DNA of 6,280 nucleotides, from NCBI GenBank assembly GCA_022710245.1, contig JAKLHH010000473.1:1-6280 (forward strand), read 5' to 3'. Below, in pieces: positions 1,471 through 6,038 of this stretch (position 1 is its first letter; every line of letters begins with the position of its first letter). Both the position numbers and the translations under genes were made by a program. The notes under the pieces were generated by a model, which saw only the letters and a program-made list of their open reading frames with translations, was not told the DNA's origin and searched no databases. The stretch comes from Myxococcota bacterium. Lineage in GTDB: Bacteria; Myxococcota; Polyangia; GCA-2747355; JAKLHH01.

Positions 1471-1520
1471 CAGTCGACCCCCCAGTCGAGCCCGCCCCAC
1501 GCTTACCAGTCGAGCCCCAC
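1471..1520. repeat. Short CAGTCGA repeat at the convergent gene ends
   Basis: The heptamer CAGTCGA occurs at 1471-1477, 1483-1489 and 1507-1513. Successive starts are 12 and 24 bp apart, so all lie on a 12-bp register, and each copy is followed by C-rich sequence. The last copy is inside the 3' end of the minus-strand lipoprotein gene, where it encodes the final LDW residues; the other two are in the 58-bp gap. It may be a small slippage-derived tandem duplication of the gene tail. I see no clear intrinsic terminator with a T-run in the gap. Confidence 0.4.
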
Positions 1521-2909
1521 CGAGGCCATCGGCACGCCGAGCGGCAGCGAGCTGTAGAACGACGAGACCCCCGGGCACAGCGGCGCCAGGAAGGTGAGAT
1601 CCAGGTAGACGCCGCGCCCGAGGACACGCACGCCGTAGAGGAGGAGCCACACCTTGCCGACGTCCTCGAAGTCGCCGAGCGGCACGTGGACCTCGAGGTT
1701 GAGCCGCACGCGGCGGCTGACCCGCCAGGAGAGGCCGAGGTCGGGGATGGCGAACCAGCGGTCGACGAAGTAGACGCGGCTCAGCTTGGTCAGCTTCTTC
1801 GTCACCGGGTCGTAGTCCTGCCTGTACTCGCGCTCGCCGTGACGCACCCCGTACACGGGCAGCCCCGCGTTGAGCAGCACCGGCCCCGCCTGGTAGCTGA
1901 GGTAGACGCCGCCGCCGTACGCCGCGAAGCGCGTGGTGAAGAGCCCGGCCAGCAGCTCCGGCTCCAGGTAGGGCCAGAAGATGCCGCCGCTCAGGTGCAC
2001 GCCGAACGCGAGGTTGGGGCTCAGCGGATGGACGTAGCGGAGCTGCGGGAACACCCCGACCCAGAGCACGGGCAGGGTGGCCTGCACCCCCAGCTGCCAG
2101 CGCTCGGAGAGGCGCGCGTCGAGCTGGTGAAAGAGGATGTCCGAGATGCCCCAGCCGAGGTTCGCCTGCGGGCGCGGCCGCGCCACGGGAGAGAGGATCA
2201 GGCGGAACGCCGTGTCCTCGTCGCCGATCTCCTCGGGCCGCTTGAAGCCGCGCTTGCGCGCCACGCGCCGGGTGACGGGCCCGCTGACGTGGATGCGCTC
2301 CGGCGTGAACTGCGCCTGCTCCTGCCGCGCGTCGAGCGGGAAGAGCGTGCGCGCGTCCGGCCAGCTCTCGCTGCCCGCGCCGGGCTCGCGCGGGAGCGCC
2401 GCCTCCACCTGCGCCTCGCCAGGCAGCCGGAAGAGGCTGGTGCCGTCGCAGCTCCCCGAGCCAGCGACGCCGCTCTCGTGCTCGAGCCGCCAGAGCGCCC
2501 GCTCCGCGCCCGGAGCGCAGCGCCTGAGCCGCGCCTGCACGGCGGCCCGCAGGCGATCGAGCCAGACCTGGAGCTTCGCGGCGCCGGCGACGGTGGCGGC
2601 GCGGTAGGGCTTCGGGCGCGAGCAGACCCAGAGGTGGTGCCAGCGCTCGCCGAGGATCAGGTGATAGAAGACCACCGCCTGCTTGCGGTGGTCGGCGCAG
2701 CGCTGCTCGCGCAGCTCCTCGATCGCGGCCTCGCCGCGGCCGCTCTCGCGGTCGACGACGGCGTCGACGAGGAACCGGTAGGGCAGCCCATGGGTGCTGG
2801 GCCTCGTCGCGCGTGATCTCGCCCCCTCCGACGAGGGGTCGGCGGGCGGCGGGGGCTGACAGGCGGCGAGCAGGAGCAGCAGGAGGAGCGGGGGGGCGCC
2901 GCGGTGCAC
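1503..2909 (-). CDS. Lipoprotein with C-terminal beta-barrel-like domain
   Basis: 468 residues, not a family I can name. A short n-region (MHRG) and a run of leucines lead to the lipobox LAAC with acylated C17, so signal peptidase II processing and envelope anchoring are expected. A Pro-rich tether (18-30) follows, then a helical region (about 40-145) with C71, C96, C131 and C154. Residues 160-245 look linker-like and charged. From about 246 to the end the protein alternates hydrophobic and polar residues in strand-like blocks rich in Gly, Tyr and Trp, including GWGISD at 252-257, and ends in an aromatic residue, W468. This resembles an outer-membrane beta barrel. The start is GTG at 2907-2909; an in-frame TAG at 2919-2921 rules out a longer form. 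No good Shine-Dalgarno is visible. The TAA is at 1503-1505. The palindromic element ends 9 bp upstream, so promoter or leader signals probably lie in or beyond it. The lipoprotein call is firm; the barrel is inferred from composition. Confidence 0.85.
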   Translation of the reverse strand: MHRGAPPLLLLLLLAACQPPPPADPSSEGARSRATRPSTHGLPYRFLVDAVVDRESGRGEAAIEELREQRCADHRKQAVVFYHLILGERWHHLWVCSRPKPYRAATVAGAAKLQVWLDRLRAAVQARLRRCAPGAERALWRLEHESGVAGSGSCDGTSLFRLPGEAQVEAALPREPGAGSESWPDARTLFPLDARQEQAQFTPERIHVSGPVTRRVARKRGFKRPEEIGDEDTAFRLILSPVARPRPQANLGWGISDILFHQLDARLSERWQLGVQATLPVLWVGVFPQLRYVHPLSPNLAFGVHLSGGIFWPYLEPELLAGLFTTRFAAYGGGVYLSYQAGPVLLNAGLPVYGVRHGEREYRQDYDPVTKKLTKLSRVYFVDRWFAIPDLGLSWRVSRRVRLNLEVHVPLGDFEDVGKVWLLLYGVRVLGRGVYLDLTFLAPLCPGVSSFYSSLPLGVPMASVGLDW

Positions 2910-2918
2910 GCGACTACT

Positions 2919-3082
2919 CTAGCCCCAAGACAAGCGCATGTCGCCTACTGCGGAGGGCGATACCGTCGGCGATACGGCGTCGGGCCTTCTCGAAGTACCA
3001 GAAGTACGACTTCGTCGGCCCTCCTTGCCTCGCCTCGGTCTCGCCCTCCTCGCTACGGCTCATGCGCTTGTCTTGGGTCTAG
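2919..3082. mobile_element. Palindromic MITE-like element with CTAG borders
   Basis: The ends are inverted repeats: 2919-2940 and 3061-3082 pair at 21 of 22 positions, sharing a perfect 17-bp core (CCCAAGACAAGCGCATG, 2924-2940). The symmetry continues inward: 2952-2960 (GGAGGGCGA) pairs with 3041-3049, 2962-2965 with 3036-3039, 2982-2986 with 3017-3021, and 2991-2996 (CGAAGT) with 3009-3014. The whole element can fold into one long imperfect hairpin centred near 3001. Both edges read CTAG. IS630-family transposons are known to insert at TA within CTAG and to duplicate the TA, so TA at 2920-2921 and 3080-3081 may be the target duplication around a 158-bp element. No transposase gene is present, so it would have to be moved in trans. 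It could instead be a structured RNA or another palindromic repeat family; copy number elsewhere in the genome would decide. Confidence 0.6.
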
Positions 3083-3147
3083 CCGACGAGGGGGGCCGCA
3101 GTCGATCTCGCCGGTGAAGGCCACCCGTTGATCGGCGCCCCCGTCGG
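3083..3147 (-). terminator. Stem-loop just after the Cys-rich lipoprotein stop
   Basis: CCGACG at 3083-3088 and GGGG at 3090-3093 pair with CCCC at 3138-3141 and CGTCGG at 3142-3147. This gives a 10-bp stem with one bulged A (3089). Inside the loop, GGTG and CACC around 3114-3125 can form a smaller stem. The structure abuts the TGA at 3148-3150 of the minus-strand gene, as expected for a terminator or a 3'-end stabilising structure. No T-run follows on the minus strand, so it is not a classic intrinsic terminator. The palindromic element begins immediately beyond it. Confidence 0.4.
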
Positions 3148-3942
3148 TCAGCAGCCAGTGCTCTGGCAGGCGTTGTAGTCCGCGGCGCACTTGCCGAGCA
3201 GGCAGGTGCGGCACCACGAGTTGTAGCCGGTCAGGCAGTCGACGTTGCACTTGCTGAACTTGCAGGCCTCGAGCTTGTCGAAGACGACCTTCGAGGTCTT
3301 GCACGCCTTGTCCCGGCAGTCGTCGACGCAGCCCTGGTACATGCAGCCCTCGCTGCAGGTGATGACCTGGTAGCAGGTGTCGCCGCTCTCGGGCGGCGGC
3401 TTCGTCGTGCCGGAGTCCACGCCAGGGGTGGGCTGGGGCTTGCTCCCGCCGTCGGCCTTGGGCGCCGGCGGCGGCGGGCACATGACGGTGGTCCCGCAGC
3501 TGTTCGCGTCGCAGGCCTTCACCTGGGCGGCGCAGGCCTGCTTCGAGCAGGCCTCGCAGTCCGGGGTGAAGCCGCCCATGCACTTGAAGAGGCAGCTCGC
3601 CATCACGCAGTCGGTCACCGCGGTGAAGGCGGCGGCGGCCGAGGCGCAGCCCTTCTTCTTGCACGCCTCCATGCAGTCCATGCTGATCCCGCACTGGCTC
3701 GAGCAGGCGCTCACGTCCGAGCAGCTCAGCCCCGACGCCTTGGTGATCTGGCAGTCGGCCGACGGCGCGGCCCCGCCATCGGAGGGCGTGCCCGGGTTGC
3801 TTGGGTTCGTCGGCTTCGTCGGGCTGGTCGGATCGTCGGCCTTGCCGGGCGCGTTCGGATCGTCGGGGAACGGTGGATCCGTGCAGGCGGCCATCGAAGC
3901 GAGCAGGGCGACAACGAGCGAGAGCGAGCTCCGCGAGCGCAT
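3148..3942 (-). CDS. Lipoprotein with two 14-cysteine modules
   Basis: 264 residues. A basic n-region (MRSRSS) and hydrophobic core lead to C20 in SMAAC, a plausible lipobox with Met at -3. A Pro/Thr/Asn/Asp-rich tether spans about 21-60. Two cysteine modules follow, joined by a Pro/Lys/Gly linker (156-188). Module 1 has cysteines at 74, 80, 84, 90, 94, 99, 112, 117, 121, 129, 132, 137, 144 and 149. Module 2 has them at 190, 196, 200, 205, 209, 214, 227, 232, 236, 244, 247, 252, 259 and 264. The spacing agrees in every interval but one, which differs by a residue, so the modules are an internal duplication. C64 and C155 flank module 1. Both counts are even, which fits full disulfide pairing outside the cytoplasm. 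ATG at 3940-3942 is supported by GGAGG at 3947-3951, four bases upstream. Function is unknown; a disulfide-stabilised surface or binding protein is a guess. Confidence 0.88.
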   Translation of the reverse strand: MRSRSSLSLVVALLASMAACTDPPFPDDPNAPGKADDPTSPTKPTNPSNPGTPSDGGAAPSADCQITKASGLSCSDVSACSSQCGISMDCMEACKKKGCASAAAAFTAVTDCVMASCLFKCMGGFTPDCEACSKQACAAQVKACDANSCGTTVMCPPPPAPKADGGSKPQPTPGVDSGTTKPPPESGDTCYQVITCSEGCMYQGCVDDCRDKACKTSKVVFDKLEACKFSKCNVDCLTGYNSWCRTCLLGKCAADYNACQSTGC

Positions 3943-4142: not shown

Positions 4143-6038
4143 TCACTCCCAGCGCAGGCACGTCCCCGGCGCGTCGTCGGTGATGAAGCCGTGGTGACGC
4201 CCCAGCCAGTACGCGATCAGGTAGTCGACGCCGGGGTGCACCGTGGTCAGCGCCCCCTCGCCGACGAGGGTGAAGGGATCGCTCTGCCACATGAAGTCCT
4301 CGTGGAGGCGATCCTTGACGTCGACCGCGACGGTCGTCTTCCCGGGACACCCTGGATCGGCGGGGTACTTGCCGGTCAGGTCCACGGCCAGGTGCACGAT
4401 CGGCGGCGGGCCGAACTGCGCGAGCTGCGCGACGGCGTCCGTGACCTGCGCCGCCGTCGGGCCGTTCTGCAGCGCCGCGTGCATGAAGGTGAAGTAGGGG
4501 TTCTTGTGGTCCTTGATGAACTGCCACATCTTGCCGGCGAAGCCCTGGCGGAAGGTGGCGAGGAGCGCTGGATCGTTCTCGAGCCGGAGCAGGTTGTACA
4601 TCGGCTGATGGCTGATGTTCAGGCCATAGTAGGCCTTCCAGCACCCCGGCGGCCCCGCGTAGGTGTAGCCCCAGCTCTTGGCCACGTCCGTGAAGGACGC
4701 GATGTTCTTCTGGTAGTGATCGACGAAGGTCTGGTTCGCCTGGGTGTAGCCGGGGACGCCGTCGGTGACCTTGATGCAGGCGCGCAGGAACGAGGAGAGC
4801 ATGATCGCGCTCCCGGAGCGCGGCAGCGGCGGGATCAGCGCGCCGATGAAGGGCGTCTGCTTCAACATCACCGAGGGGTCGGGCATGAACTCGCGGAAGC
4901 CGGACTGGGTCGACTCGTCGAGCGCGGTCGGGTCCTCGTCGCTGCCGATCTGCAGGTAGGGCGCGCCGTTCTTGAACTCGCTCGGCACCAGCAGCGCGTA
5001 CTGGACGTCGTACTTGAGCGGCAGCTCGATCCAGGTGCCGCCGACCTTGAAGCGCAGGTTCACCGGGACCTGCTTGCGGTCCTTGATCAGCTCGCTGCAG
5101 AAGGTCACCAGATCGTCGCGGATGAGCTGCCTGTGCGTCGTCGAGCTGAGCGCCTCGTAGGCGAGCGCGTAGCCGAGCACCACGCCCTGGTACTGGTCGC
5201 GGCTCGTCGAGCCGGTGTAGAACCAGTCCTTGCCCTGGACCTTCACCTTGTGGTGCTCGGGGTTGGTCGGGTCGTAGAGCGCGTCGAGGAGCGGATCGAC
5301 GCCGAGCGGAGCCGCCTGCCGCGCCATGTAGCCGGGGTCGCCGGTGATGGCGAAGAGCCCGTGGAGGATCTCGACCAAATGCTCCGCGTTGGCGCGCGCC
5401 TCCGGCGAGCCGGTCACCTGCAGCCGCAGCGCCTCCGCCGCGAGATAGGACCCGGTCCAGATCGCGCCGTCGCGCGTGTGGCCGTAGCCGCCGAGCTTGC
5501 TCAAGGTCTGGTCCGTGAACCAGGCGTTGAAGACCACCCCGGCCGGCAGGTGGTGCGCGCGCAGCCACGCGTCGTGGAGCCGTGCCCGGTCGCGCGTGCC
5601 GGCGCCTGGCGCGACGCTCTTGCCGGCGGCGAGCGAGTAGAGCTTGCACTCCTGCGTCTTGCCGGCGACCTCGCGGCTCGCGCCGAGGAGGCACTCATCG
5701 GTGCAGCTCGAGGCGCAGGCGGTGGCCAGGCAGCGGCTGCCGGGGCCGCAGGCCTCGGTGACCCACTCGAGCCGGCCGCCGACCTCCTTGCACTGCCGCT
5801 GGTGATCGAGGTCGGGGCAGCTCGAGGCGCCGGCCGAGCAGGCGGGCACCGAGTCAGGCGAGAGCAGGTCCGGCAGGGGCGAGAGGTCCTGCCCCGGCGC
5901 GGCCTCGGCGGGCGGCGGGGCCGCGTCGCGGGCGGCGGCCTGCTCGGCCGCCGGAGGTGCGGGCGGCGCGTTGGTGCTGCAGCGAACGAGGACCAGGGCA
6001 CCAGCCACGACGAGGCCGACCACGGGACGACGGCACAC
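4143..6038 (-). CDS. Exported Cys-module protein with large helical enzyme-like domain
   Basis: 631 residues. An n-region with two arginines and a hydrophobic core (5-18) reach C20, but Arg at -1 is poor for a lipobox, so lipidation is uncertain. An Ala/Pro-rich linker (22-65) precedes a nine-cysteine module: C67, C74, C83, C97, C103, C108, C112, C116, C131. Its early C-x6-C-x8-C spacing and a Trp five residues before the fourth cysteine resemble modules I associate with myxobacterial secreted proteins. From about 155 to 615 the chain is mostly helical with recurrent aromatic and acidic motifs: GYGHTRDGAIWTG (184-196), TSRDQYQG (278-285) and GLNISHQPMYN (472-482). These recall (alpha/alpha)6-barrel glycosidases and lyases; D190 and D281 are candidate active-site residues. 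That fold is an inference and no substrate can be named. GTG at 6036-6038 is preceded by AGAGGTGA, and an in-frame TGA six bases before it excludes a longer start. The permease stop is 94 bp upstream, so co-transcription with it is possible. Confidence 0.85.
   Translation of the reverse strand: MCRRPVVGLVVAGALVLVRCSTNAPPAPPAAEQAAARDAAPPPAEAAPGQDLSPLPDLLSPDSVPACSAGASSCPDLDHQRQCKEVGGRLEWVTEACGPGSRCLATACASSCTDECLLGASREVAGKTQECKLYSLAAGKSVAPGAGTRDRARLHDAWLRAHHLPAGVVFNAWFTDQTLSKLGGYGHTRDGAIWTGSYLAAEALRLQVTGSPEARANAEHLVEILHGLFAITGDPGYMARQAAPLGVDPLLDALYDPTNPEHHKVKVQGKDWFYTGSTSRDQYQGVVLGYALAYEALSSTTHRQLIRDDLVTFCSELIKDRKQVPVNLRFKVGGTWIELPLKYDVQYALLVPSEFKNGAPYLQIGSDEDPTALDESTQSGFREFMPDPSVMLKQTPFIGALIPPLPRSGSAIMLSSFLRACIKVTDGVPGYTQANQTFVDHYQKNIASFTDVAKSWGYTYAGPPGCWKAYYGLNISHQPMYNLLRLENDPALLATFRQGFAGKMWQFIKDHKNPYFTFMHAALQNGPTAAQVTDAVAQLAQFGPPPIVHLAVDLTGKYPADPGCPGKTTVAVDVKDRLHEDFMWQSDPFTLVGEGALTTVHPGVDYLIAYWLGRHHGFITDDAPGTCLRWE

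What the first reader, a model, noticed from the sequence alone, without database searches (positions are those of the whole stretch)
2919..3082. Full-length palindromic element with CTAG borders, a possible IS630-type MITE
The ends pair at 21 of 22 positions, and inward arms keep pairing to a small central hairpin near 3001, so the whole 164 bp folds on itself. CTAG at both edges matches the IS630 target rule (TA duplication inside CTAG). It sits in the gap between two lipoprotein genes, 9 bp before the GTG of one. Excising it with one TA copy would leave the genes about 78 bp apart. The near-perfect outer repeats with diverged inner arms suggest selection on the ends, as expected for a mobilised element.
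Basis: partly seen in the sequence, partly recalled or inferred. Interest (0 to 1): 0.72.

Follow-up and report, generated by a model that had tools for sequence, protein, structure and literature searches.

The report
Palindromic mini-transposon with shared hairpin core
A 154-base palindrome between two genes is a small passenger transposon that most likely moved with an IS1380-type enzyme, duplicating six bases of target, and its centre belongs to a family of DNA hairpins that often sit exactly at the ends of genes in related bacteria.

Summary
The palindrome is real (fold z -10.1 and -9.4), but its edges are not those proposed. The element is 2924-3077 (154 bp), flanked by a 6-bp direct repeat TCTAGC. 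Over 34 paired copies from three sources the 6-bp repeat, nearly always NCTAGN, is exact in 21; random pairing gives 3.35. So the rule is 6 bp, not TA inside CTAG. One MAG (G001) has 417 matches to the end motif against 1 for the control. In that MAG and three other genomes, 1.8-1.9 kb elements with IS1380-family transposases have matching ends; 5 of 6 complete ones have the same 6-bp repeat. No IS630 or IS481 gene bounded by these ends turned up among the loci examined. Unexpectedly, the centre (2958-3043) belongs to a covarying hairpin family matched in 129 of 309 genomes of one class. Many copies start at a stop codon: 62 of 97, against 1-6 of 97 at shifted positions. Pairing shows little G-U excess, pointing to DNA rather than RNA. 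Copies and empty sites in the window's own genome could not be tested.

The parts
2918..2923 (.). left copy of the target duplication, TCTAGC
   Evidence: identical to 3078-3083; 6-bp repeat exact in 21 of 34 paired copies
2924..3077 (+). palindromic non-autonomous element, 154 bp
2924..2940 (+). left terminal repeat CCCAAGACAAGCGCATG; CCCAANNCAAGCG is shared with G001 and G002 copies and resembles the ends of IS1380-type elements
3061..3077 (-). right terminal repeat, inverted copy of 2924-2940
2958..3043 (+). 86-bp hairpin core shared with other palindromes; covariance-model match with flanking arms is 2936-3064, 117 bits (the window is in the training set)
3078..3083 (.). right copy of the target duplication, TCTAGC
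1503..2909 (-). 468-aa ORF with lipoprotein-like start (by eye); GTG 8 bp from the left duplication
3148..3942 (-). 264-aa cysteine-rich ORF with lipoprotein-like start (by eye); its end lies 64 bp beyond the right duplication

Best explanation
The 154-bp palindrome is a MITE-like passenger element. An IS1380-family transposase acting in trans recognised its CCCAANNCAAGCG ends, cut a CTAG site with a 6-base stagger and inserted the element, duplicating TCTAGC. Its interior is a member of a dispersed palindromic hairpin family whose arms and outer ends differ between lineages, so the window copy is that hairpin carried by IS1380-type ends. Shown: the ends, the 6-bp duplication, many copies of the ends in another genome, IS1380-type elements with matching ends and target in four genomes, and the shared core. 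Inferred: trans mobilisation, activity, and the order in which core and ends were joined.
For: 6-bp duplication: 21 of 34 pairs exact (G001 18 of 30, G002 2 of 3, window 1), random mean 3.35, maximum 9 in 300 re-pairings; the two variable positions agree in 24 and 26 of 34 (10.1 and 11.4 expected) (binomial p 2e-13). G001: 417 matches to CTAGNCCCAANNCAAGCG with up to 1 mismatch against 1 for the reversed control; G002: 13 against 3. Some neighbouring G001 copies share one CTAG, as expected if elements insert into the CTAG at each other's edges. IS1380 transposases score over the curated cut-off in 7 of 19 genomes that hold at least one exact end motif. Complete elements bounded by such ends: G509 1877 bp, G380 1894, G001 1810 and 1807, G753 1871 twice; 5 of these 6 have an exact 6-bp NCTAGN repeat. 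The window has only two CTAG, one at each edge.
Against: No genome of the window's host is held, so copies, empty sites and a resident IS1380 element were not seen there; the flanking 468-aa ORF has no relative but itself, so no orthologous gap was found. The autonomous partners lie in other genomes, and G001's own two have CCT or CTT, not CCC, at their tips; two of the twelve IS tips (G380 right, G001 L234 right) deviate further. 13 of the 34 pairs lack an exact duplication. 12 of the 19 genomes with the motif show no IS1380 match over cut-off. IS1380 elements are recalled as making 4-5 bp duplications, so a 6-bp NCTAGN rule is unusual for the family. No relative of the element's translation was found, and viral contigs gave no exact match to the window's own 17-base end.
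Confidence: 0.8

Rival explanations
1. IS630-family MITE with TA duplicated inside CTAG.
For: CTAG is at both edges, and the TA would be duplicated. Related palindromes in G871 show TAG at both ends in 10 of 10 fetched copies, which would fit a TA duplication there.
Against: The bases outside the TA, including the variable ones, are duplicated too. DDE_3: 0 matches in G001, 2 in G002, neither with the ends at fewer than 4 mismatches.
Confidence: 0.04
2. MITE of the IS481 family, whose published target duplication is the same NCTAGN.
For: NCTAGN duplications are reported for IS481-family elements (passages of PMC2516522 and PMC6794481).
Against: NF033577 matches in 9 of 12 genomes, none over cut-off; of the 30 loci fetched, five hold a single 3-mismatch match to the ends and none a pair bounding the gene. 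rve_3 gives no match in G001 or G002. The published IRs begin TGT, not CCC.
Confidence: 0.07
3. A structured RNA element (3' UTR or small RNA) conserved for its RNA fold.
For: 88.5% of cells form standard pairs against 61.0% shuffled, and 30 of 36 pairs have changes on both sides. Many family members begin at a stop codon on the sense strand.
Against: On 88 distinct copies G-U cells (115) only modestly exceed A-C cells (79), and 52 of the G-U lie in two columns. No Rfam match for the core. The window copy follows no long frame on its sense strand (open for 20 codons only).
Confidence: 0.08
4. Intrinsic transcription terminator of the upstream gene.
For: GC-rich hairpin downstream of 3148-3942 on the minus strand.
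Against: It has target duplications and its ends are dispersed in another genome. Short-arm relatives show no T-run after the right arm (63 copies); the window itself was not scored for one.
Confidence: 0.03

Closest known systems
IS1380-family insertion sequences (NF033539) and their possible MITEs
   Same: Ends mostly CCYNNNNCAAGCG and 6-bp NCTAGN repeats found here around IS1380-family transposase genes.
   Different: The window element has no gene, is palindromic throughout, and resembles the IS elements only at its tips, about 13-16 bp (by eye). Searches for 'IS1380' with 'MITE' (7 papers) and 'IS1380 family' with 'CTAG' (1 paper) showed no IS1380 MITE in titles, abstract starts, or the passages I read of three of them (PMC4133298, PMC11578231, PMC9330008).
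IS481 family
   Same: NCTAGN target duplication; TAG of the repeat can serve as a stop codon (PMC2516522, PMC6794481, passages read).
   Different: Different ends, and no IS481-type gene bounded by these ends among 30 loci.
REP repeats (GTAG and CGTC families), BIMEs
   Same: Dispersed palindromes close to 3' ends of ORFs, their termini often giving the TAG stop, some in dimers (PMC3733652, passages read).
   Different: REPs are 20-40 bp with a GTAG or CGTC foot; these are longer hairpins with an 83-87 bp core. RAYT association not tested.
Small mobile repeats (SMR) of Haloquadratum
   Same: About 110 bp, prominent inverted repeats, strong target preference, mobiliser unknown (PMC3119063, passages read).
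   Different: SMR-A insert into other elements and make no target duplication.

Membership tests
IS630-family MITE | 2-bp TA target duplication | tested here: not met
   6 bp duplicated, 21 of 34 exact
IS630-family MITE | ends shared with an IS630 transposase element | tested here: not met
   only G001 and G002 searched: DDE_3 0 and 2 matches, the 2 without the ends; window host not testable
IS481-family MITE | 6-bp NCTAGN duplication | tested here: met
   rule from passages of PMC2516522 and PMC6794481
IS481-family MITE | ends shared with an IS481 transposase element | tested here: not met
   12 genomes, 30 loci scanned, no bounding pair
IS1380-family MITE | terminal repeats shared with an IS1380 element | tested here: met
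   6 complete elements in G001, G380, G509, G753, with tip differences; not testable in the window's own genome
IS1380-family MITE | same target and duplication length as the IS | tested here: met
   exact 6-bp NCTAGN in 5 of 6 complete IS pairs; the family norm of 4-5 bp is recalled and differs
IS1380-family MITE | moved in trans by the transposase | not testable with these tools
   needs a transposition assay
MITE (any) | dispersed copies in the host genome | not testable with these tools
   no host genome held; copies of the ends shown in G001
MITE (any) | short, no transposase gene, terminal inverted repeats, target duplication | tested here: met
REP | 20-40 bp with GTAG or CGTC foot | tested here: not met
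   154 bp with CCC ends
REP | association with a RAYT transposase | not tested
   no search made
Rfam RNA family | match at gathering score | tested here: not met
   window and 17 loci (only a neighbouring tRNA matched)
Intrinsic terminator | T-run after the hairpin | tested here: not met
   63 short-arm relatives; not scored for the window

The most novel reading that the evidence does not exclude
The core defines a family, for which I found no description, of mobile DNA hairpins that seat themselves exactly at the 3' ends of genes (stop codons and tRNA ends), keep their symmetry by DNA-level pairing, and have repeatedly acquired different terminal repeats, so that different transposases, IS1380-type among them, carry the same core. 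The window copy would be one that left the gene-end site by riding IS1380-type ends into a CTAG.
Probability: 0.35. Interest if true: 0.8.

Novelty: new variant of a known kind. Interest (0 to 1): 0.6.

Why it matters
It gives a case of a palindromic passenger element with an IS1380-type, 6-bp NCTAGN signature. CTAG is scarce here (449 seen against 1054 expected in the fetched G001 loci, overlaps between loci counted; 2 against 16.6 in the window). Where elements sit it falls at the stop of a long frame more often than elsewhere (37 of 107 element ends against 92 of 438 other CTAG readings; p 0.005), a modest excess, so targeting CTAG may be a way to land without breaking genes. The shared core poses a testable question: how does a hairpin come to sit within a few bases of stop codons and tRNA ends, and how does it change its ends?

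Tried and rejected
Rfam gave nothing for the core. BLAST in plasmids and phages gave only 21-22 base matches with E 0.6-0.7. Viral contigs: no exact 17-base end; the looser motif gave 49 stretches with one match each, and a pair scan showed among them only one repeated 3.3-kb candidate with poor ends (L140, L145, L151), not pursued. IS630 (DDE_3), rve_3, rve and IS481 models were tried before IS1380. The single rve hit in G001 (C47, next to an ATPase-like frame, probably IS21 type by eye) shows only one 3-mismatch match to the ends. A first end scan of the IS1380 loci used a pattern one base too long; corrected. The RNA reading was tested by G-U against A-C counts and not supported. A protein-level search for other copies of the window element found none. 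L270's very long perfect arms begin at a contig end and may be an assembly artefact; it stayed in the alignment A1. For the IS1380 duplication length I saw listings and passages of PMC4133298 and PMC9330008 that do not state it; the 4-5 bp norm is recalled. 'Myxococcales' with 'MITE' and 'repetitive' gave 0 papers. Other papers were seen as listings only, except PMC3733652 and PMC3119063 (passages).

Rows dropped or chosen: one search kept pairs with both ends within 1 mismatch of CCCAANNCAAGCG, 100-420 bp apart, with 12-bp flanks and no second start inside. One search used 84 of the 92 matches (the eight weakest left out). One search used those 84 plus 30 of the 31 matches (a weak second match left out), then only distinct ones with at least 330 bp upstream: 97. 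One search used 107 of 119 ends (300 bp of outside sequence needed). The 7 loci were picked by eye for tRNA-like flanks or missing stops; 4 of 7 have a tRNA. 'Genes' are open frames of at least 100 codons, not annotated genes.

Full report
What is there. The window holds one inverted repeat between two ORFs that both read on the minus strand (1503-2909 and 3148-3942). The 164 bases fold far better than shuffles on either strand. The end motif occurs only at the two edges. The window's genome is not held, so relatives had to come from elsewhere.

Relatives with the same ends. A scan of genome contigs for TAGNCCCAAGACAAGCGC gave 14 stretches, 5 of them in one MAG (CALHXW, here G001). With CTAGNCCCAANNCAAGCG and up to one mismatch, G001 has 417 matches against 1 for the reversed control, and a Planctomycetota MAG (G002) 13 against 3; two other MAGs have one each. 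At zero mismatches only G001 matches among 52 genomes of its class; 7 of 377 genomes of its phylum match (G001 included) and 12 of 392 of the phylum of G002 (G002 included), several with a single match that may be chance. Of 30 paired G001 copies 24 are 171-172 bp; the three G002 copies are 206, 240 and 361 bp.

The edge rule. I paired ends without demanding CTAG. Among 34 pairs the six bases before CCC and the six after GGG are identical in 21, against 3.35 by random pairing. Exact agreement at 3, 4 or 7-11 bases is 0, at 5 bases 1 and at 2 bases 5 (5.3 expected). In the window both sides read TCTAGC. The base between CTAG and CCC, which fails to pair across the palindrome in many copies (by eye), is thereby explained as target and not element. 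This contradicts a 2-bp TA rule.

Which transposase. NCTAGN is published for IS481-family elements (passages), but none of the 30 IS481-type loci examined has a bounding pair of these ends. DDE_3 (IS630) gives no match in G001. Reading the interiors of loci bounded by the motif gave two IS1380-family transposases (275.9 and 210.5 bits against a cut-off of 180; the second is a fragment of an open frame). Searching 19 motif-bearing genomes with that model gave matches in 13, over cut-off in 7. Scanning the 30 loci returned and reading out the edges gave six complete elements of 1807-1894 bp; five have exact 6-bp NCTAGN repeats, and the sixth (G001, L243) differs at one base and abuts a palindromic copy. 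A seventh (G176, L232) is cut at its left repeat, the five visible bases agreeing. An eighth (G656, L231) has a degenerate left end. This ties the ends and the target rule to IS1380-type elements, though not in the window's own genome.

The core. A search with the window's element in 317 genomes of the class of G338 (a genome with a 48%-identical relative of the neighbouring 631-aa protein) gave matches in 16. They cover the interior only, and only two candidates per genome were scored. The better-scoring loci are palindromes too, but with other arms; for several of the weakest, short matches no clear palindrome was found. On 15 sequences (the window and 14 loci from 10 genomes) 30 of 36 predicted pairs show changes on both sides, with all measures above shuffled and slid controls; the structure was derived from the same sequences, which favours the share of paired cells. 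A covariance model finds matches in 129 of 309 genomes of that class, the class from which its 10 training genomes came, with at most 11 candidates scored per genome. In 405,645 bases of other loci it finds nothing below E 0.6. In two samples not chosen by matches it finds one match in 400 kb of G910 and two, one of them strong, both in G871, in 187 kb of G871 plus G977, so a rough guess is tens of copies per genome. Of the G002 loci, L036 matches inside its palindrome (30.5 bits, E 2e-5), others weakly; in the sampled G001 stretches one match stands out (L086, 28.4 bits, E 8.5e-5), and it lies outside the palindromic copy there. Homology of the G001 interior to this core is therefore not shown.

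Where the core family sits. In five genomes with short arms (G911, G910, G261, G942, G977), 44 of 49 copies have the stop codon of a long sense frame within -12..+8 bp of the arm start (counted from the listing). Over 97 distinct copies a window of -5..+8 holds such a stop in 62 (TAG 32, TGA 22, TAA 8), against 1-6 when shifted by 30-120 bp; on the other side it is 13 of 88, against 2-11 when shifted. The copies are the best-scoring ones of their genomes, not a random sample. Four loci abut tRNA genes that end within 3 bp of the match start. In G871, G872 and G334 the arms are longer and end in repeats shared within the genome, so one core is found with several sets of ends. G-U cells only modestly exceed A-C cells (115 against 79), which I read as symmetry kept at DNA level. 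The window copy is not at the stop of a long frame, as expected if it arrived by CTAG insertion.

Reading. The best account is an IS1380-type MITE whose cargo is a hairpin of a wider family. How the family reaches gene ends, and how ends are exchanged, is open; REP repeats offer the nearest precedent for gene-end placement (PMC3733652, passages). The taxon of the window is inferred only: relatives of its 631-aa protein include records named Deltaproteobacteria and Polyangia, besides one named Thiohalocapsa.

Noticed in passing
L359 801-928(+)/1037-1165(-); L361 193-320(+)/801-927(-); L362 801-927(+)/1084-1209(-); L363 801-927(+)/1036-1161(-); L384; L390: Core-family hairpins occur as inverted pairs 8-480 bp apart; in three of the four G910 pairs both hairpins follow the stop of their own long frame, so they lie between convergent frames. 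Reminiscent of REP dimers.
   Followed up: partly
L294 1415-1502, L295 1430-1504, L298 1427-1500, L305 1429-1503: Core-family hairpins start within 3 bp of tRNA 3' ends (tRNA-Ser, two tRNA-Arg, tRNA-Ala).
   Followed up: partly
L316-L325 (G871): All ten fetched copies carry TAGACC at both ends, so TA may be the duplicated target there; in several the TAG is the stop of a neighbouring long frame. No transposase was sought.
   Followed up: no
L216 and L217 (G634): Tiny 33-bp palindromes made of little more than two CCCAANACAAGCG ends, flanked by CTAG.
   Followed up: no
L086 196-305 (G001); L005 139-251 (G002): Core-family matches (28.4 and 22.8 bits) lying outside the CTAG-bounded copies in those loci; perhaps independent members.
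   Followed up: no
window 3148-3942: Cysteine-rich 264-aa lipoprotein-like ORF with a weak, below-cut-off Vanabin-2 match.
   Followed up: no
window 4143-6038: 631-aa lipoprotein-like ORF; 59 proteins at E <= 1e-3 including itself, none with a listed Pfam domain, some from records named Deltaproteobacteria and Polyangia.
   Followed up: partly
G753: 32 matches to the IS1380 model, many with internal stops: a genome with many decayed IS1380 copies.
   Followed up: no
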